Assembly (NCBI GenBank): GCA_903918755.1
Contig: CAIXFN010000036.1
Span: 1-39,952 of the forward strand
Direction: 5' to 3'
Length of the DNA stretch: 39,952 nucleotides
From: an uncultured Pedosphaera sp.
Lineage (GTDB): Bacteria; Verrucomicrobiota; Verrucomicrobiia; Limisphaerales; Pedosphaeraceae
The notes under the pieces are model-generated. The model did no database searches and was not told where the DNA came from. It saw only the letters and a program-made list of their open reading frames with translations. The translations under genes were made by a program, and so were the position numbers. Positions 31,128-39,952 of this stretch are shown here, piece after piece (within the stretch, counting starts at the first letter, position 1; each line of letters starts with the position of its first letter).

Positions 31128-31949
31128 TCAGGGATGGGTCTTCGGCGCGACCCATCCTTTGTGCCAGTTAAAATTCCAAAGATTGTCCAACCGGACGACC
31201 TCGGCATGGTTGTCGGCAAAGACCATGTTAATCATCCCGGGCAGCACCTGGCCGCGAACATAGCGTAGCGCCCTGGGCGCGGTAGCGGCGGACCGGTTGC
31301 TGTGCCGGTCAATCAGGCTCAGGCCCATGCCATGCTGGCAACCACTCCGATTGCCGAAATAGCCGTTGTACAGGTCGGCGGGATTCAGGGTGTTATCGCT
31401 TTCCAGCGGGAAAATATAATACCAAATGGAATCCAGAAACATCGGGGTATTGGATGGCAAATTCAGGTCCGCCTCCCGTTTGAAGAAAAACGTGGTGAAT
31501 CCATCCACCGGGGTGTGCTCCACCGAGAGCCAGCCGTTGATGGCATAGCTTCCGGCATTGTAAGCCGGGTTGGGCGTCGAACCGACAAAGGTTTGGTCGG
31601 CCGTGCCCCAGCCCCCGTCCCGAACTAACTTCGGCACGTGAGTTGACGGGCACACCTGGACCTGGGGATTCCCGCTTTGGATGGAGGAATCGATGCTGCC
31701 CTCATCGGCGGTGGCCAGGACCAAGGTCCCGGAGTGGTCATCAATGTAGAGGCGTCGCGCGAGCGCCGTTTGGCGCAAATTGTTCAGGCAGGCAATCCGC
31801 TGCCCTTTTAGTTTTGCCTTGCTCAGGACCGGCAACAACATGGCGGCAAGAATGGCAATGATGGCGATTACCACCAGCAATTCAATCAGGGTGAACGCAG
31901 TGGGGGTGCGTTTCCTTGCGGTTTGTGGGCGTAGCCGCTCGGGAGTCAT
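31128..31949 (-). CDS. Prepilin-type (type II secretion pseudopilin-like) secreted protein
   Basis: About 273 residues from the ATG at 31949 (MTPERLRPQ...); the frame is open to 32009, overlapping the GH43 stop, but the ATG at 31949 gives the shorter basic leader usual for prepilins. The class III signal is [20 protein letters not shown]: cleavage is expected before F19, with the conserved glutamate at +5 (E23) and a hydrophobic helix reaching about residue 44. The rest is a large globular domain with a C-terminal [15 protein letters not shown] motif (the 'aD.H' ending common in PVC pseudopilin-like proteins) and [12 protein letters not shown]. Such genes are hugely expanded in Verrucomicrobiota and often follow glycosidase genes, as here. 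Role probably surface attachment or secretion; unproven. Confidence 0.9.
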
Positions 31950-32005
31950 CAATCGACGATGCCCTAAACAACTGAGATTACAAGGATTTTTGGCTGCTAC
32001 TTCCT

Positions 32006-33658
32006 TCAAATCGCCGCAGCGGCAAAAGGATCTGCGCGGTAGCCACGCTCCTGGTATTCAAAAAAGGCAAAGTCGGCCGGCCGTGCGGTGCCCGCGGTGT
32101 CCTGACAGGCCATCCCGACAAACGCTCCGGTGAAGTTCGGTTGACCGGGCACCGTGGCTTCGTCGGACAGGATGCTCGCGTCAAATTGTTGCGGCAGCCA
32201 TTGCCACTTGCCATCCCCCCCTTCCAACCGGTAGGCAAAGTGCAGCCGTTCGAAATCGACTTCGACGCGCAAATAGACCGGTTTACCCGCGGGAATGGCC
32301 ACCGGCGGCGTGAAGGAATCGGATTGCGGGGAGTCGGGCGTGCAGGTCATGACGCGGAGGTGTTTACCCAGCGTCTCGTCGTGGGAGACATAAAGGTAAT
32401 GAAACTTGGCGCTGTTGTAATAACAGGTGAGTCCGGCGCTCTGCTGAAAATGCTCCGGTTCAAACTCCACCACCGTGCAGGCCGAAAAACAATGCGCCTG
32501 CTGCCGCCGCGCCACCAGTGCCTGCCGGAACTGGCTGCCGATCGTTTCCCGGCCAAGGAGGCGTAGGAATCCCGGCCGCGCCGTGAGGCTGAAGATCTCG
32601 TCGGGCCAGGGCGTCCGCAGCCATTGGAAGGCCAGGGGCAATTGCGGCGAGTTGAATTCCTCGCGGATGGGGGCTGGCGGGAAAGGGTGTGGGGGCAGTA
32701 ACGGGGCCGGTGATTCGGTCGTCGGCAGGCCTTGTCCGTCCATGGTCCGGAGCCAGCCATCCGCGCCCCAAACCATTTTTTGCAGGGCGGTTTCCCGGCC
32801 GAGCGTGCAGCGACCGCGATTGCGCAACGGCCGGCCGCAGAGATACACCATGTAGGTTTCCCCATCCGGCGTTTCGACCAGATCGGCATGGCCGGCGCGT
32901 TGCAGCTCGACATCCGGTCGGTTCCGCGCGCTCAGGATGGTGGTGTCCGGATGTAATTCGTACGGACCGGTCAGATTCCGTGAGCGGGCCATGGTCACGG
33001 CATGCCCCCAGCCGGTGCCGCCTTCAGCGGTGAGCAGGTAATACCAGCCGTCGCGTTTGTACAGATGCGCGCCCTCGGTGAATCCCAGGGGCGTGCCCCG
33101 AAAAATATTCCGCCGTTCGCCGATCAACCGCTTTTCGGACACCGAATACTCCTGCAAAACGATTCCGGCGAAACGATTGTTCCCGGGCCGATGGTCCCAC
33201 AACTGGTTCAGGAGATATTTCCGCCCATCGTCATCGTGAAACAATGACGGGTCGAAACCGCTGCTATTGAGTGGAATCGGATCCGACCATTCCCCATCGA
33301 TGCGCGGACTGGTCACGAGATAATTGTGGAAGTCACGCAAGGAAGCCCCGCTGGCGCCCCCCACCGTGGTGCGACCGTAGCGTTTCACGTCCGTGTAAAT
33401 CAGCCAGAACAATCCGTCCGCGCAGGTGAGGCACGGCGCCCACACGCCGCACGAGTCGGGATCGCCCAGCATGTTCAGCTGCGCCGGGCGGTTCAGCGGC
33501 CGGGTGAGCAACCGCCAATGAACCAAATCCCGGGAATGATGGATCTGCACGCCGGGGTACCACTCGAAGGTGGAGATCGCAATGTAGTAATCGTCACCGA
33601 CCCGCACAATGGACGGGTCAGGGTTGAAGCCGGGAAGGATGGGATTGTGGATGGTCAT
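32006..33658 (-). CDS. Glycoside hydrolase family 43 beta-xylosidase/arabinofuranosidase
   Basis: 550 residues from the ATG at 33658, whose ATGA overlaps the transporter stop; sequence further upstream in the frame is antisense to nothing real and is omitted. The N-terminal five-bladed propeller starts [19 protein letters not shown] with the general-base aspartate in NPDPS (D14). SCGVWAPCL lies in the middle, and [21 protein letters not shown] carries the likely general-acid glutamate. The second half (from about residue 340, [18 protein letters not shown]) is a concanavalin-like beta-sandwich as in GH43 beta-xylosidases. No signal peptide, so a cytoplasmic enzyme that cleaves imported xylo- or arabino-oligosaccharides. 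The preceding sugar symporter gene supports this. Xylosidase versus arabinofuranosidase is not resolved. Confidence 0.93.
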
Positions 33659-35100
33659 GAGGTTGCGGTGGCTGGAGTGGCGGCGGCGCGGCGGGCGGCC
33701 AGGTCGGTTTCGATCCGGTTCACCTGCGGCTGGCTCAGCGGGTAAATCCACAAGGCCGCAGCCTTCAGCAGGGCGAACCCCGCCGGGAAGAGCGAAAAGG
33801 TGAGGGTGATGCCGAGAATGGAGGCAGCGGATTGCGCCACATTCGGGAGATAGCCGTATTCCTTGAGCACCCAGGGCAGGAGCAGTCCGGCCAGGGCCGT
33901 GCCGGTTTTGATGGCGAACAGGGAAGCCGAATAAACGAGTCCGGTGGAGCGACGGCCAAATTTCCACTCGCCGTAGTCGGCCACGTCCGCATACATGGCC
34001 CAGACTAGCGCGGAAGCGGGGCCCATGCAAAAGCAGCCCAAGGCCTGGATGGCCAGTTGCAGCGCGAACGCATGCTTCGGAAAGAAGTAAAACGACGCCC
34101 AGCAGATCGCCGTGACGGTCGTGAGTGCGTACGAGAGAATCCGCTTGTCCGCCACCCGGGCGAATAGACTCAGGCAGTACGAGCCAAGCATCTGGCACGC
34201 CATGCCGAGGGAGACAAAAACCGTGAAGCGGTCAAATTGGCCGAACAGAACCGGCTGATTGTCGTAGCCCGCCACGTATTTGAAATAATAGATCGCGCTG
34301 CCATTACGCAGCCCGATGAAAGTGAGCGAAAAGATCGCGGACAGCAGCACCATGATCCAGGGGAAGTTGCCCAGCAGTTCCTTGATTTCGCCCCACGCGT
34401 GGTTCTTCTGCCCGGGCGGGACCGTGACGCGTTCCCGGGTGGTCGCAAAACAAATCAGGAACATCACCGCGGAAAGCACCGCGAAAATCAACATCGTGAG
34501 TTGGAAGCCCCGCAGTTCGTTGATGACCTTCCCCGCCGCGTTGGCCCCGCCGCCCAGCCATTTCACGAGGGGACGCACGAAAAGCGACACCAGCAGGCCG
34601 CCGCCGAAAGCCCCGACAAAACGGTAGCTGGAGGCCAGGGTCCGGATCCGCGGCGAAGGACTGATGACCCCGAGCATTGAGGAATACGGCACATTGATGA
34701 ACGAGTACGCCAGCATCATGAACGCGTACGTGATATAGGCGTACACCAGCTTGCCCGCGTTGCCGAGATCCGGGCTGGCGAACAGCAGGTAGCCGCCGAG
34801 CCCGTAGGGCAGGGCAAACCACAGCAGGTAGGGACGGAACTTGCCCCAGCGCGTCTGCGTGCGATCCGCCAGGAGGCCGATCAGGGGATCCGCGGCGGCA
34901 TCGAACAACCGGACCATAAGAAACATGGTGCCAATCGCCGCCGGCGCCAGTCCCCACACATCAGTGTAAAAGTAGGTGAGAAAAATGCCGAAGGACTGGA
35001 AAAACAGGTTCGAAGCCGTGTCCCCGAGGGCGTAGCCGACGTATTCGGCGGTCTTGAGTTCCGTGGGGTTGGCGGCTGGTCCGGAGGGCACTTTATTCAA
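33655..35100 (-). CDS. GPH-family sugar:cation symporter (MFS)
   Basis: About 480 residues with around 12 transmembrane helices, of the glycoside-pentoside-hexuronide:cation symporter family. The start KTAEYVGYALGDTASNLFFQ, then FLTYFYTDVWGLAPAAIGTM and RLFDAAADPLIGLLADRTQT with GKFRPYLLW, are the family signature (the RFDAxxDPxxG loop). The start is uncertain. A TTG at 35100 or a GTG at 35091 gives a normal N-terminus, while an ATG at 35259 adds about 53 basic residues that look non-coding. Overlap of its stop with the GH43 start shows an import-and-hydrolyse pair for oligo-xylosides or similar sugars. The gene lies at the left edge of the AT-rich region, but its own codon use is like the rest of the chromosome. 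Confidence 0.92.
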   Translation of the reverse strand: MNKVPSGPAANPTELKTAEYVGYALGDTASNLFFQSFGIFLTYFYTDVWGLAPAAIGTMFLMVRLFDAAADPLIGLLADRTQTRWGKFRPYLLWFALPYGLGGYLLFASPDLGNAGKLVYAYITYAFMMLAYSFINVPYSSMLGVISPSPRIRTLASSYRFVGAFGGGLLVSLFVRPLVKWLGGGANAAGKVINELRGFQLTMLIFAVLSAVMFLICFATTRERVTVPPGQKNHAWGEIKELLGNFPWIMVLLSAIFSLTFIGLRNGSAIYYFKYVAGYDNQPVLFGQFDRFTVFVSLGMACQMLGSYCLSLFARVADKRILSYALTTVTAICWASFYFFPKHAFALQLAIQALGCFCMGPASALVWAMYADVADYGEWKFGRRSTGLVYSASLFAIKTGTALAGLLLPWVLKEYGYLPNVAQSAASILGITLTFSLFPAGFALLKAAALWIYPLSQPQVNRIETDLAARRAAATPATATS

Positions 35101-35259
35101 AGGCTTTGGTTTCGTGGTTCGGGTTGCTGTGCGGTAGATTATTGACCAAACTCGCCGGGGTGTGAAGTCCTGATTTACCGGCCGCCAGCGATGCAGGAGC
35201 GTTCCGAACGGTGAGGTGAAGTTTACGAATACGCCGGTCGGAGTTCTGGTCGAATTCAT

Positions 35260-35933
35260 CCGAGCTATTGAAATAAACCAGATTGTTCATGTCATTCAAA
35301 TGGATTTTTTCCCGGTGATGCATAAGCTTTCAAAAATGCTTTCCATTTTGCGGGGTGTTAATTATGCCTGGTTCATCATAAAACCAAGGTCAAGGAATCG
35401 AATTAGGAAATTTCGTTGCTCATTGGCAACGCGCACATGCCGAAGGCGGAATAGTTCTGCCAGGTCATCGAGAATCGAGTGCAGGAGGCCTGAAAGGAAC
35501 ACCACACCCTGTTACGAAGACCTTGATGTGCTAACCGGGCCAAGACCAAAGTTGAAGATTAATTGCATCAATGGTGCAATATTTTGTGAAGTCAATGCAG
35601 GCAAGCGAACCATAAATCAACCATCCTTTGGGATTCCCGCTGCTATCTACGCAAAGCATTGCGGCGCATAATGTTAGAAGCACAGCTCGGAGGTCAATCG
35701 GCAGAAAAACAAAACGTTCACAGCAATAACCACAAGGGTAAAACATTCCCCAAAAACCGTTCGCACCCACACTGCAGGCAAAATTCCAAAGAGTATCTAA
35801 AACCATCCGTTCGGCACAAAAATGCAACTTGAGAAGCGCCATAGACAACAGAAAAGTGAAAAAGCAAATCATCGACTCGAAAACCAAGGCAGCCCGCAAT
35901 CACAAGAACATATAAAAAGCGATAAAAATTAAT
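35260..35933. other. AT-rich non-coding stretch at the island's left edge
   Basis: About 670 bases without a gene I can support. Base composition changes here from GC-rich to AT-rich. Short open frames exist on both strands (35216-35671 plus, 35531-35899 minus) but show no family features, no consistent codon pattern and poor starts. A small inverted repeat, ATTGCA (35562-35567)/TGCAAT (35575-35580), is present. No tRNA or integrase was seen, so there is no obvious attachment site. The right end must carry the promoter of the large ATPase gene. Confidence 0.5.
35361..35387 (-). promoter_or_regulatory. Possible promoter of the transporter-GH43 operon
   Basis: On the minus strand TTGGTT (plus 35382-35387) and CATAAT (plus 35361-35366) are separated by 15 bases, in the upstream region of the sugar transporter, within a GGTTxxxxxxxxAACC inverted repeat. 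The match to a housekeeping promoter is partial and the spacing short, so this is a guess. Confidence 0.2.
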
Positions 35934-35969
35934 TTGCCGCTTGACACGCAAAACAACGCTGAAGTAGTC

Positions 35970-38900
35970 ATGGGAGGCATGCCACCATCAGACGAACCGG
36001 ATGCACAACACAATCGGAAAGTTCCCTCGATCCAGGGGTTCAAAGAACTCTTCGCATCAGCGTCAGGAATCCCAGAGGGAGCAACTCTTCTTGTTTCAGG
36101 ACCTCCTGGTTCAGGCAAAACCACCTTCGCTTTAGCTCTGATTCGAGGATTGATGTCGCATGCGTCAAAGCTGGGCGCGAATGCCAAATGCCCACAGAAG
36201 GAACAAGAGGAAGCTTTAGTATACTATATCAGTTCGGAGGTTACGGAAAAAGCGCTGAGAAGTGCGTACGATTCATTCGGTTGGTTTGAGCAACAAAAGG
36301 ACAACACTGAAAAACCGTCGAAAACTAAAGAAGAACCCTTCCGATTTCGCATAGATGACCCAGCGCCCGATCGAACAAACTTTTTCCCCATTACGCCCCT
36401 TCCCGAAGTGGATCGACCCGTACCATCACCGGAGGAGCTTGTCAACAGCATATTCACCCGAATTGCGAATACTTTAACTCCAAGTGAGACGCCCCGGCAG
36501 AACACGAAAATCTACGTTATTGTCGATAGCATAACCGCCCTATTGAAAGGCTGTGCAAATCCAGGAGATGAACGACGCCAAACACATGAAATCGTCCACA
36601 GGCTACGCGATCGCTTCGGCCCGACAAATCTTAGCCTAACCATTTTATTGGCAGAACAAGATCACCGAGCGCTCGAATCAGAAATTGATCGACATTCAGT
36701 AACCCCGACGACGCCTTCCGTTGAGGATTACCTTGCTGACATCGTTTTCAGGTTGTACGTGCGCTCGCTTCCACTAGGCCGTCGCTCCCGGGTTCTTGAA
36801 GTGGTAAAATCTCAAGGTGTCAACATGATCTTGGGAGAGCATAGTTGGCAAATCATCACGCAAGACACATTTCAACAAATCCTGCGCCACGAAGGAATGC
36901 AGAAATCCATCAAGTTAGCATGTTCTGAAAACATCTTTCCAGAAAGGGCACGGCGATTGCAGGACATCATAACAGCAATGCTGGAAATTTTGCAAAAACA
37001 AATTCAGTCCTTTGCCAGCAAACAATTTCCAAAAAGCAAAAAAAGAGAAATCACTGCCCTTCTCAAGCAAAAGTCAACACAAGAAGGACTGGAGTATGCA
37101 TGCAAAGAACATTTTAAATGTGTCATGCTAGCGGAGAACACATGGCCTCAGGCACTAGACGAAGCTGGCTATTGTCAAAGACTTCTGTCGACTACAAAAG
37201 ACCTAGCATCTATTATCACGGAGCAGGACCTCATTGCTTTGCTAAATAAGAGTTTCAATTCCCAATCCGTCATTAAATGCTTATGGGGTGGTATAATACT
37301 TTTTCCGAGACCGCAATTGCAACGTAAGTATTCTTTTGGAGCTGAACGATCAACATCGCTGGAACAACTTCACTTAAACCCAGGTACAACGGGATTGGAG
37401 GACGTCATCATTACCCCGGGTACCACCACGTTGGTCGCTGGGCCTGTCGGAAGTGGCAAGACAACACTATGTAAGCAGTTTTTGAAGGCAAACCCAAGGT
37501 ACATAAACATAAAGAAAGCCATCACTCTCACTGATCTGCCACCAAAGCCACTACTACAACCAAAGCCTGTATTGATAAGTTTCGATATTTTTCCAGCAGG
37601 ATATGAAGATCGCAACATCGAAATCCTCGATTTTACTCAAACAAAATTCGACCTAAATGTTTTAGTTTCACACATTGGTTGGATCTTCGATGGTGATTCC
37701 CCCCCTGACAAAATTGGCTTCGATGGTCTCTCGGAATGGATAACGATGTTTGACGAACCAGAGGCCGCGCGCATGCTTGAAGTGCTGATGGTGACAGTTT
37801 TGCAAACAAGAAGAACTCCCGCTGTGTTCATGACATATGCACTGGAGCTAAATGATGATCCGCTGGGACCCCATGCCCTCGGAATGAATGCAGATAACAT
37901 TATTGTGGTAAGGCAAATCGCAATAAATGACCAGCTACGACGTATTCTTTACATTCTTAAAGGCGGGGGTGGCATTCGAGAACCGGAGACTCCGCGCGAA
38001 TGCATTCTGCTGCATCGAGAAAACAGCGATGAACCAGAGTTGGTCGTCGTTAAGGATACACTTGACTATTATACTGGTTTGCTGGGCCGCTCGGGCGATT
38101 TGAAATCAGCAAATGTCTTATTACAGTTGTTTGCTGAAAATAATAGTGAACAAAAGCTAAACAAAGAACTATATGAGGCCGTCAAACAACAACATGAAAG
38201 CCGTTTAAACATTACTTATACTCAATTTAGCAGATCTGAAATCGGAAGCACGCTTGACACCGCGCAAAACGATCACAGCCCCGGAGAATCCGCAACGCTA
38301 AAAGTGCAATCTGTAGATGAATGGTGGTTGGGTTCCAAAAAAACAACCGAATTTTTACGAGATATCGGCAACTTATGGAGCATGAATCCCGATTTAAATG
38401 AATCATCTACAGCGGATATTAAATTGGACGAGTTTAGCACGAACCACCGCACGGTCGGTTGGATTGACTATTGGTCCTTTGAGGTCGAAAAGGCAATTTC
38501 CAGAACAGCTAGAGGGGCGAATGAAAGTCTTAGCAAGATTCACAAAGGCGAAAAGTCAAATAGACGAAAAACAACAACAAAGCAAGAGTTAGACGTGTTG
38601 CAAATCCACGCAGTACCTAACTACATGGATTTTGGAATGCTGTGCATAAACGAAAGAATTTGGACAGCAGCCAAAGAAGCTTTGTCAAGAAATGAAATCA
38701 CATCGAATGGACAATCCAGGAAGGCTGAGACTGAGCGGGAACAAAGGGAGCGTCTCCGAAAGGAAAGCCGGAACAATTGGGTTGCTATCATAAGCCAGAT
38801 CCCTCGCCAATGGGTGCGTCATGCCGTCCTGAAGGGCAAGGAAAATATTAACTGGTTCTCTCTAAATCTCTCCGAAACTCAACATCGATCCCTCCTTGAG

Positions 38901-39836
38901 TTCGCATTATATATCACGGGACAAAATGATTTTGGCATTCTTGAGCGCAAACCAGTCTTTACCTTCGATCTCGGTACGCGAGAAACTTGTGTCTGCACTT
39001 TTCTTGAATTCGCCTGGGCGTTCGGCGCCAAGGAGGAATTTCTCGCTGTCACCTCCCCTGAGGACATTGATCGCCAGGTGGCAGCCGCTCAATCAGCGAT
39101 GACGTTTCTTCAATTCATGGTTTTGGAGGGTTTAATGCCGGAACGGGGGGCAATCGACAATTTGAATGCAGGATGTAACACACTGCTTATCCGTCATTTC
39201 TACAGCACGCTTGTAAAAACTCAGGAATCGATGATTAACTCAAAATCCCAAGTTAATGATAACTTTATTGCTTTGCCATTCATGCCCCTCGGAATCGAGT
39301 CGTCTGTTGAAGCATATAAGAGCGGATTTTTAGATATCGCCACCCGCTTGCGTTACTGGATTCAACGTGTCGATGAAATAATGGCACTCTATCACACCGA
39401 CAACCCTAAATCTTGCAAAAGCGCAATAGCACAAGTAGAAGACAACAAAATACTTGCATTACTTTTAGAAATAAAGCGGTGGCAAAAAAATAATGCAACG
39501 CAATCTGCTGACGACCCATCAATAGGCGAAGCTATAACATGCTACGACAACTGTCGATCCATTGTTCTGATTTTGGCGGGGCGCGGCGCCACTCAAGATC
39601 GAAATCGATACCCTCATCACCTCACAACGGTAGACGATCTGGTGGAACTGACTATTTGGGCAGCCCTTCGCCTTCTGCTTTTGATGGGCACTCCAACCGG
39701 CATGTTTCCATCGTTCACGCGATCAGTTGCTGACGGGGGGCATTTAGAGAACGGCATGGACGAGGTGAGAAGATTCCACCAGTATTTGCCAGATCTTAAA
39801 ACCTTAAAAATAGGCCGCGCAAGTTTTTTTCTGTAA
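35970..39836 (+). CDS. Double KaiC/RAD55-type ATPase with large unassigned C-terminal half
   Basis: About 1,288 residues from the ATG at 35970 (a TTG at 35934 is the longest start). Domain 1 (about residues 20-300) is KaiC/RecA-like: Walker A GPPGSGKTTFALAL (from residue 44), VYYISSEVTEKALRSA with the catalytic-type glutamate, Walker B KIYVIVDSITALL (D186), and SVEDYLADIVFRLYVRSL with the RVLEVVKSQG strand. Domain 2 (about 465-690): TTGLEDVIITPG, Walker A GPVGSGKTTLCKQFL (from 491), a weaker Walker B IGFDGLSEW (D585), and FMTYALELNDDPLG. Residues about 720-1288 match nothing firmly; several stretches resemble ABC solute-binding proteins (see findings). No signal peptide or membrane helix, so cytoplasmic. 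Codon use is AT-rich (many AAA, GAA, ATT), unlike all other genes here: likely transferred. Not a circadian-clock KaiC; role unknown. Confidence 0.85.
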   Translation: MGGMPPSDEPDAQHNRKVPSIQGFKELFASASGIPEGATLLVSGPPGSGKTTFALALIRGLMSHASKLGANAKCPQKEQEEALVYYISSEVTEKALRSAYDSFGWFEQQKDNTEKPSKTKEEPFRFRIDDPAPDRTNFFPITPLPEVDRPVPSPEELVNSIFTRIANTLTPSETPRQNTKIYVIVDSITALLKGCANPGDERRQTHEIVHRLRDRFGPTNLSLTILLAEQDHRALESEIDRHSVTPTTPSVEDYLADIVFRLYVRSLPLGRRSRVLEVVKSQGVNMILGEHSWQIITQDTFQQILRHEGMQKSIKLACSENIFPERARRLQDIITAMLEILQKQIQSFASKQFPKSKKREITALLKQKSTQEGLEYACKEHFKCVMLAENTWPQALDEAGYCQRLLSTTKDLASIITEQDLIALLNKSFNSQSVIKCLWGGIILFPRPQLQRKYSFGAERSTSLEQLHLNPGTTGLEDVIITPGTTTLVAGPVGSGKTTLCKQFLKANPRYINIKKAITLTDLPPKPLLQPKPVLISFDIFPAGYEDRNIEILDFTQTKFDLNVLVSHIGWIFDGDSPPDKIGFDGLSEWITMFDEPEAARMLEVLMVTVLQTRRTPAVFMTYALELNDDPLGPHALGMNADNIIVVRQIAINDQLRRILYILKGGGGIREPETPRECILLHRENSDEPELVVVKDTLDYYTGLLGRSGDLKSANVLLQLFAENNSEQKLNKELYEAVKQQHESRLNITYTQFSRSEIGSTLDTAQNDHSPGESATLKVQSVDEWWLGSKKTTEFLRDIGNLWSMNPDLNESSTADIKLDEFSTNHRTVGWIDYWSFEVEKAISRTARGANESLSKIHKGEKSNRRKTTTKQELDVLQIHAVPNYMDFGMLCINERIWTAAKEALSRNEITSNGQSRKAETEREQRERLRKESRNNWVAIISQIPRQWVRHAVLKGKENINWFSLNLSETQHRSLLEFALYITGQNDFGILERKPVFTFDLGTRETCVCTFLEFAWAFGAKEEFLAVTSPEDIDRQVAAAQSAMTFLQFMVLEGLMPERGAIDNLNAGCNTLLIRHFYSTLVKTQESMINSKSQVNDNFIALPFMPLGIESSVEAYKSGFLDIATRLRYWIQRVDEIMALYHTDNPKSCKSAIAQVEDNKILALLLEIKRWQKNNATQSADDPSIGEAITCYDNCRSIVLILAGRGATQDRNRYPHHLTTVDDLVELTIWAALRLLLLMGTPTGMFPSFTRSVADGGHLENGMDEVRRFHQYLPDLKTLKIGRASFFL

Positions 39837-39842
39837 AATGTT

Positions 39843-39952
39843 TTAGCATTTTGAACTGAGAGCTGGGTATTGGTTATCCATGTTGAGGTAAATTTTCTCG
39901 CTGAGCCATTCGTCGCTGATTTCGGCGAGGAGGGCGCTAATCAAACGGAGGA
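39843..39952 (-). CDS. Partial transposase, IS256-like C-terminus (gene runs off the window)
   Basis: The last 35 codons of a minus-strand gene, stop TAA at 39843-39845. The residues LRLISALLAEISDEWLSEKI followed by YLNMDNQ look like the C-terminal end of IS256 (Mutator-type) transposases, where a helix ending in 'eisdeW..gr.YlnM' is common. Only this fragment is visible, so the family call is moderate. Its stop is six bases from the stop of the ATPase gene, facing it. The terminal inverted repeat expected outside a transposase gene would therefore have to lie within the ATPase gene's 3' end, or be lost. Confidence 0.55.
   Translation of the reverse strand, partial: LRLISALLAEISDEWLSEKIYLNMDNQYPALSSKC

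What the first reader, a model, noticed from the sequence alone, without database searches (positions are those of the whole stretch)
35970..39836. Giant double-KaiC ATPase in a solitary, transferred setting
Seen: two P-loop domains with KaiC/RAD55 hallmarks (Walker A at residues 44 and 491, Walker B aspartates at 186 and 585) are joined by a ~160-residue helical linker and followed by ~570 extra residues. No kaiA/kaiB, histidine kinase or partner gene is nearby. Known: KaiC-family proteins act in clocks, signalling and diverse other roles, usually at 230-520 residues. Inference: this is a single-gene switch or sensor, possibly of defence type given the foreign codon use and nearby transposase. 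Domain 2's Walker B (FDGLSEW) is degenerate while domain 1 looks complete, suggesting one catalytic and one regulatory ATPase.
Basis: partly seen in the sequence, partly recalled or inferred. Interest (0 to 1): 0.8.

Follow-up and report, generated by a model that had tools for sequence, protein, structure and literature searches.

The report
Sensor-fused KaiC ATPase, partner cut off
A giant protein with two clock-protein-type motor domains and a sugar-binding-protein-like tail turns out to be the first half of a rare two-gene bacterial cassette, possibly an anti-virus system, and the copy in this window has been cut short by a jumping gene.

Summary
The ORF and its two KaiC-type ATPase domains are real, but "solitary" is not supported. 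The contig ends 116 bp past the stop codon, and an insertion sequence (from 39813; 22 right ends in this genome) cuts the ORF: residues 1282-1288 are IS-derived. Five complete relatives were found in five other genomes of the class. In 5 of 5 an AAA+ ATPase gene (729-823 aa as called) follows on the same strand, and the two proteins' divergences correlate (r=0.958; 2 of 120 labellings). That partner was not found in this assembly. The ~570 extra residues match ABC sugar-binding proteins by profile (only PDB hits: 6dtq, 1eu8). The relatives carry 106-124 further residues that the window copy lacks. Domain 2's Walker B Asp is invariant in 6 of 6, so it is not degenerate. In G914 the pair lies inside a DISARM-type locus (drmA, drmB). 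Relatives of the partner's AAA+ module sit near TIR, SIR2 or DUF4062 proteins above Pfam cut-off in 4 of 7 loci. Best reading: a two-component ATPase sensor cassette, probably of defence type, whose window copy is probably dead. Defence is inferred from context and untested.

The parts
35970..39812 (+). native part of the KaiC-KaiC-SBP-like protein gene (codons 1-1281)
36024..36860 (+). KaiC-type ATPase domain 1 (about residues 19-297): Walker A K50, Glu90, Walker B D186, all invariant in 6 of 6
36861..37382 (+). long inter-domain linker (residues 298-471, 174 residues; 61-119 in the five relatives)
37383..38069 (+). KaiC-type ATPase domain 2 (about residues 472-700): Walker A K497 (5 of 6), position 539 Asp here and Glu in the other 5, Walker B D585 (6 of 6), ADN 641-643 (6 of 6)
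38172..39812 (+). C-terminal region (residues 735-1281) resembling ABC sugar-binding proteins (MalE type); motifs DEWW, VPxYxDFGM, ET..FxExxWAFG; cut at its 3' end
39805..39812 (.). 8-bp TAAAAATA abutting the IS; 8 bp is the duplication length that pairs 13 of 20 tested right ends with left ends in this genome, but none of the 21 left ends has this octamer
39813..39952 (-). right end of an insertion sequence (22 right ends in the genome), to the contig end; supplies the last 7 codons and the stop of the ORF
35260..35969 (.). AT-rich upstream stretch (GC 0.437); contains only short ORFs, not searched further

Best explanation
The window gene is the first gene, truncated, of a rare two-gene cassette. 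Gene 1 encodes a fusion, presumably cytosolic, of two KaiC-type ATPase domains and a C-terminal domain of the ABC solute-binding-protein (MalE) kind. Gene 2 encodes an AAA+ ATPase whose N-terminal domain is shared with a wider family of (RyR-)AAA+ proteins. Proposed mechanism (inferred): the SBP-like tail closes on a small molecule or on an invader-derived ligand. This changes ATP turnover or assembly of the tandem KaiC ring. The ring then engages the AAA+ partner, which remodels the target or effector. Context makes defence against phages or plasmids the likeliest role. In this genome an IS has removed the end of the SBP-like domain and separated or lost gene 2, so this copy is probably non-functional. 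Shown: the KaiC domains, the IS cut, the pairing in 5 of 5, the co-divergence, and one DISARM-type context. Supported but not proven: the SBP-like fold. Inferred: ligand sensing, complex formation, defence.
For: Gene pair adjacent on one strand in 5 of 5 complete loci (G073, G920, G916, G914, G939). Co-divergence of the two proteins r=0.958, reached by 2 of 120 labellings, the true one included. KaiC domains. C-terminal region: a profile of 6 members against all PDB sequences gave only two hits at E up to 10, both maltose/trehalose-binding proteins (1.6e-5 and 7.8e-4), with blocks in colinear order. HHalign score 41.7 (44.0 with the 5 complete relatives) against a trehalose/maltose-type SBP set, where 60 column-shuffled decoys reached 20.7 at most, and 36.7 against a MalE/UgpB set, where 30 decoys reached 17.3 at most. 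IS right end at 39813 with 22 copies. 106-124 residues, including a conserved block, follow in the relatives and are absent here. G914: drmA E=5.6e-267, drmB E=7.1e-74 and PDC-S31 E=5.9e-29 next to the pair, plus an SNF2-type and an adenine-methyltransferase-type protein farther upstream on the same strand. Partner relatives near TIR, SIR2 or DUF4062 proteins above Pfam cut-off in 4 of 7 loci.
Against: Only 1 of 5 loci is clearly in a defence neighbourhood. G073 has an upstream SNF2-like helicase that could be housekeeping. Flanking proteins scanned with PADLOC at E up to 0.001: G916 0 of 4, G939 0 of 4, G920 1 of 3 with a match (a methyltransferase, mad2-like, E=1.9e-10). PADLOC gives no whole-protein match for the genes of the pair that were scanned. 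HHalign probabilities for the SBP relation are modest (15-57%), and no Pfam SBP family matches any of the 6 members even at E=10. The second SBP set was chosen with a query taken from the 1eu8 hit and includes one fragment, and one non-SBP control profile reached 22.4 against it. Single-sequence AlphaFold models were useless (pLDDT 35).
Confidence: 0.55

Rival explanations
1. The cassette is a metabolic or signalling device rather than defence: the SBP-like domain senses an intracellular sugar or nucleotide and the KaiC/AAA+ pair regulates a cellular process.
For: The SBP-like tail has sugar-binding relatives. N-terminal domains of the partner's wider family show a ribokinase-like signal (A6 against RbsK/PsuK/FruK score 41.3, 40 decoys at most 17.8). 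No PADLOC match among 4 flanking proteins scanned at G916 and 4 at G939.
Against: Very patchy distribution: 2 of 387 genomes of the phylum draw, 2 of 384 of the class draw, 1 of 320 of the order, 5 of 386 of the order of G073. GC below the flanks and changing neighbours. DISARM-type context in G914. The true partners' own N-termini gave no signal against ribokinases.
Confidence: 0.3
2. The window gene is a working stand-alone KaiC-type switch, and the missing C-terminal block and partner are dispensable.
For: The frame is open and the domain-1 catalytic residues are intact. The octamer at the IS junction has no left-end mate in the assembly, so the downstream sequence is unknown.
Against: 5 of 5 complete relatives have the block and the partner. 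The stop codon is IS-derived. The partner was not detected in this genome by single sequence or by profile (at most two candidates scored).
Confidence: 0.08
3. It is a divergent KaiC clock or output protein.
For: Tandem KaiC domains with the KaiC arrangement.
Against: Best KaiC family score 50.4 bits against a cut-off of 408. Gly-Met faces the Ser-Thr of 8zn5 KaiC next to the conserved second-domain Asp. The neighbour is an AAA+ ATPase, and there is an additional 500-600 aa tail. No KaiB search was run.
Confidence: 0.03

Closest known systems
KaiC / RAD55-type ATPases (PF06745), double-domain KaiC
   Same: Two tandem KaiC domains with Walker A, catalytic Glu and Walker B in register; plasmid KaiC proteins align across both domains of the G073 relative
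   Different: 500-600 aa SBP-like tail, AAA+ neighbour in 5 of 5 complete loci, no Ser-Thr at the phospho-site position in the window copy; far below the clock-KaiC cut-off
ABC sugar-binding proteins (MalE3, trehalose/maltose BP)
   Same: Colinear motif blocks in the C-terminal region
   Different: Fused behind two ATPase domains, so not at an N-terminus behind a signal peptide; no Pfam SBP match
RyR-AAA+ proteins near TIR/SIR2/DUF4062 genes
   Same: Same AAA+ module as gene 2 and a related N-terminal domain (HHalign 97%, E=1.1e-10)
   Different: The one true partner scanned with Pfam (P0004) has no RyR domain; tblastn of the KaiC-SBP proteins found nothing at E up to 1e-3 in the 8 loci held around such AAA+ relatives
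DISARM (drmA, drmB, methyltransferase, SNF2 helicase)
   Same: In G914 the pair lies between methyltransferase/SNF2-type genes and drmA/drmB, all on one strand apart from one opposite gene
   Different: No drmA/drmB among the flanking proteins scanned at the other four loci; KaiC-SBP and this AAA+ are not DISARM components as known (recalled)
MADS mad8 (PADLOC)
   Same: Match to mad8 (E=4e-11), best stretch residues 28-133 around the first P-loop
   Different: Two stretches only, best one covering part of a 314-position model; gene set differs (recalled)

Membership tests
KaiC/RAD55 ATPase superfamily | PF06745 match above gathering score | tested here: met
   70.6 bits vs 26.6, window protein; 97.6 bits, G073
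KaiC/RAD55 ATPase superfamily | Two tandem domains with Walker A and B | tested here: met
   6 of 6, except domain-2 Walker A Lys in 5 of 6
Circadian KaiC | Match to clock KaiC model above cut-off | tested here: not met
   50.4 of 408 bits and 24.6 of 546.25 bits
Circadian KaiC | Second-domain Ser/Thr phospho-sites | tested here: not met
   Gly-Met in the window at the positions facing Ser-Thr of 8zn5 KaiC; the role of these sites is recalled
Circadian KaiC | kaiB (kaiA) in the genome or operon | not tested
   no KaiB search was run
ABC solute-binding protein fold | Profile similarity to solved SBPs | tested here: met
   6dtq E=1.6e-5, 1eu8 E=7.8e-4, the only hits at E up to 10
ABC solute-binding protein fold | Pfam SBP family match | tested here: not met
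   0 of 6 members at E up to 10
ABC solute-binding protein fold | Structure | tested here: inconclusive
   single-sequence model pLDDT 35
RyR-AAA+ family (partner) | Shared AAA+ module | tested here: met
   32-40% identity over about 300 aa between partners and the two plasmid proteins
RyR-AAA+ family (partner) | RyR domain | tested here: not met
   P0004 (partner) and P0003 (Streptomyces) have no PF02026, whereas P0002, L111, L112 and L113 proteins have it; the other four partners were not scanned
DISARM | drmA, drmB and methyltransferase beside the pair | tested here: not met
   present in G914 only; not seen among the flanking proteins scanned elsewhere
Known PADLOC defence system | Whole-protein match of either gene | tested here: not met
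   only partial, mostly P-loop-level matches for the window, G073 and G939 gene 1; gene 2 of G073 only DolB E=0.05, of G920 none

The most novel reading that the evidence does not exclude
A previously undescribed two-gene immune system in which a tandem KaiC motor has captured a cytosolic maltose-binding-protein-type domain as sensor, possibly for an infection-made sugar or nucleotide signal, and hands the signal to an AAA+ partner; in at least one genome it sits inside a DISARM operon as an add-on module.
Probability: 0.35. Interest if true: 0.85.

Novelty: new variant of a known kind. Interest (0 to 1): 0.62.

Why it matters
KaiC-family ATPases are widespread but few have a known role outside the clock (recalled). 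This family ties a tandem KaiC motor to a solute-binding-protein-like sensor and to an AAA+ partner, and offers a small, testable two-gene unit. If it is defence, it adds a new sensor type and a KaiC motor to the bacterial immune repertoire and links the partner's AAA+ module to TIR/SIR2/DUF4062 neighbourhoods. It also shows how a contig end can create a false 'solitary gene'.

Tried and rejected
Gene 1: close-relative searches in genome contigs, viral contigs, plasmids (tail alone) and phages found no relative. Plasmid tblastn of the G073 protein matched 81 records, none over 80% of the query; those listed matched over its two ATPase domains, and where a feature was annotated there it was a KaiC-type or ATPase-domain protein. 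Gene 2: none in phages or, as single sequence, in viral contigs; the profile found one viral-collection contig. Partner in the window's own genome: the single-sequence search gave two weak matches (best E=0.045); the better one is a proteasomal-type AAA ATPase by eye (name recalled) and was rejected, the other (E=0.65) was not followed. The profile search gave none. An IS left-end hunt showed that 13 of 20 right ends pair with a left end by an identical 8-bp duplication (two of the 22 right ends were not tested). The window's right end is one of 7 unpaired. tblastn of the 21 left-end flanks (1.0-1.7 kb each) gave E=1.6 at best for the partner and 0.66 for the G073 KaiC protein, so the downstream side is missing or rearranged. 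A first repeat (C10/C12) was wrongly taken for the left end and dropped. Pairwise scoring of the window's last 151 native residues against the G073 tail was no better than shuffles, so the cut point relative to relatives rests on the 6-way alignment. Partner-type N-domain profile against PDB: no hit; against ribokinases: signal only for the RyR-type/plasmid relatives. AlphaFold jobs without relatives were unusable. Papers: seven full-text searches; I saw titles and abstract starts of capped lists (4 of 4, 20 of 119, 10 of 22,130, 25 of 1,903, 12 of 34, 10 of 33, 12 of 723), and none of those listed described this architecture. Two eLife papers were searched for KaiC, RyR, PfkB, ribokinase, RAD55 and RecA with 0 occurrences. 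One wanted paper is not held. Genome counts are lower bounds: at most two candidates per genome were scored, and the draws overlap. Loci L130-L133 were fetched in search of binding proteins and not used.
Full report
WHAT IS IN THE WINDOW. The frame 35970-39836 (+) encodes 1288 aa. The contig C36 is exactly 39952 bases long: the gene ends 116 bases before the contig does. The window's end recurs at 22 places of this genome (itself included), each reaching a contig end, apart from one base in one case. It is the right end of an insertion sequence that begins at 39813, at a codon boundary inside the ORF, so residues 1282-1288 and the stop come from the IS. By eye the IS fragment encodes the end of an IS256-type transposase (recalled, no family call). 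13 of 20 right ends tested find a left end with the same 8-bp duplication; the window's octamer finds none among 21 left ends. The downstream flank is therefore absent from the assembly or rearranged, and neither a partner nor its absence can be read from the window.

RELATIVES AND THE PARTNER. The family is rare: 2 of 387 genomes in a draw of the phylum, 2 of 384 of the class, 1 of 320 of the order, 5 of 386 of the order of G073. The draws overlap, and the first three counts include the window's own genome. Six holders in all: the window's genome and five others. In 5 of 5 of the others the KaiC gene (1122-1408 aa; 1229 aa for G073 from the chosen start) is followed on the same strand, with no gene between, by a gene of 729-823 aa as called, with an AAA+ module (Walker A GxPG[AS]GKS, DEFD, SR[LI]R segment). 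Gaps are 5, 48, 59 and 38 bases; in G916 the called frames overlap because gene 2 was called from a TTG start, so 823 aa is an upper bound. Both genes are poorer in GC than the surroundings: G073 0.51 against about 0.60, and 0.52-0.59 against mostly 0.6 or more in the other four loci. The neighbours differ. Pairwise identities of the two proteins across the five loci correlate (r=0.958; 2 of 120 labellings as high, the true one included). The partner was not found in the window's genome.

DOMAINS. Domain 1 keeps Walker A Lys, Glu90 and Walker B Asp186 in 6 of 6. Domain 2 keeps Walker B Asp585-Gly586 and Ala-Asp-Asn 641-643 in 6 of 6, Walker A Lys in 5 of 6, and a Glu at position 539 in 5 of 6, the window copy having Asp. 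So domain 2 is not degenerate as a family trait, only more relaxed. The linker is 174 residues in the window and 61-119 in the relatives. The C-terminal region has no meaningful Pfam match (6 members), but its motifs (VPxYxDFGM, ETxxCxFxExxWAFG, GxW..gV..LtSlk.Ak.RA..GaG.PaRkDFY) looked to me like those of sugar ABC binding proteins. A six-member profile then found exactly two PDB sequences at E up to 10: MalE3 (6dtq, 1.6e-5) and a trehalose/maltose-binding protein (1eu8, 7.8e-4), with blocks in the same order, most of them weak singly. A two-member profile had given MalE3 alone at E=0.21. HHalign against a ten-member SBP set scored 36.7 (30 decoys at most 17.3; permease, LivJ/K and unrelated profiles at most 18.2). 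Against a six-member trehalose/maltose-type set, picked with a query from the 1eu8 hit and including one fragment, it scored 41.7 (60 decoys at most 20.7; other profiles at most 22.4). The probabilities themselves are modest (20% and 44%; 15% and 57% without the truncated window member). I rate an SBP-like fold at about 0.8. It would be cytosolic, since it lies behind two ATPase domains (inference). Relatives carry 106-124 residues beyond the point where the window copy is cut, including the conserved PARkDFY block.

THE PARTNER'S WIDER FAMILY. The AAA+ module of gene 2 occurs in proteins on a Methylobacterium plasmid (with a RyR domain) and a Streptomyces plasmid, in five further genomes of the phylum draw (6 of 387 with G073) and on one IMG/VR contig. 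Of the proteins scanned, P0002, L111, L112 and L113 have PF02026 (RyR) above cut-off, and P0003 and the true partner P0004 do not. Of the seven plasmid and genome loci, four hold a neighbouring protein above Pfam cut-off of a kind met in immune systems: SIR2 (L102), DUF4062 with a sub-threshold NACHT (L111), TIR and DUF4062 with TPR (L112), DUF4062 with AAA_16 and WD40 (L113). Two have only sub-threshold matches of interest (L114 DUF4231/SLATT, L103 AAA_16/NACHT), and L115's neighbours were not scanned. None of these loci, nor the IMG/VR contig, has a tblastn match to the KaiC-SBP proteins at E up to 1e-3 (8 loci). Their N-terminal domains show a ribokinase-like signal (score 41.3, decoys at most 17.8), and the true partners' N-terminal domains are related to them (97%, E=1.1e-10) but gave no signal against ribokinases directly. 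[quoted passage not shown] abstract and passages seen). That makes nucleotide signalling a natural guess for that wider family, not evidence for this pair.

DEFENCE CONTEXT. At G914 the locus reads, on one strand: SNF2/RapA-like protein of 1079 aa, adenine-methyltransferase-like protein of 1336 aa (E=7e-5), PDC-S31 (E=5.9e-29), then an opposite-strand gene (best PADLOC model capP, E=1.4e-18), then again on the first strand KaiC-SBP, partner, DrmA (E=5.6e-267), DrmB (E=7.1e-74). I read this as a DISARM-type locus with the pair inside it; the two upstream genes were typed only by PDB similarity. At G073 the gene upstream is an SNF2-type helicase (best PADLOC model DpdE, E=3e-202), which may be housekeeping, and the one downstream of the partner a methyltransferase (mad2 E=6.6e-4). 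Elsewhere PADLOC matched 0 of 4 flanking proteins scanned at G916, 0 of 4 at G939 and 1 of 3 at G920 (mad2-like methyltransferase, E=1.9e-10). So defence is favoured, not shown.

VERDICT. The 'solitary single-gene' reading is unsupported: the contig end and an IS hide the downstream side. The thing is a truncated member of a rare two-gene KaiC-SBP / AAA+ cassette. No description of this architecture was among the papers listed (capped lists, titles and abstract starts seen, in a library that lacks most subscription papers).

Noticed in passing
window 39813-39952; G000 contig ends: An IS with 22 right ends and 21 left ends fragments this genome; 13 of 20 tested right ends pair with left ends by 8-bp duplications, a ready map of insertions.
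   Followed up: partly
L128 / L152 (G914:C455): The two-gene cassette sits inside a DISARM-type locus, between methyltransferase/SNF2-type genes and drmA-drmB.
   Followed up: partly
L102:5048-15425 (Methylobacterium plasmid pA): RyR-AAA+ protein near a 2082-aa SIR2-TPR protein, with transposase genes around.
   Followed up: no
L112 and L113: RyR-AAA+ proteins near DUF4062 proteins with TPR or WD40 repeats, with a TIR protein (L112) or a sub-threshold TIR match (L113): a recurrent conflict-like neighbourhood.
   Followed up: partly
L110:8240-11134: A 964-aa AAA+ relative of the partner on a 117-kb IMG/VR contig; neighbouring genes look more like a plasmid than a phage, by eye only.
   Followed up: no
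window 31128-35259: Minus-strand genes upstream: a prepilin-type N-terminal methylation-like protein, a glycoside-hydrolase-like protein and an MFS-type transporter, by eye; GC about 0.6 up to the AT-rich break at about 35260.
   Followed up: no
L127:4276-8205 linker: The G916 relative has an acidic EEA-type repeat in the inter-domain linker, the stretch that is also extended in the window copy.
   Followed up: no
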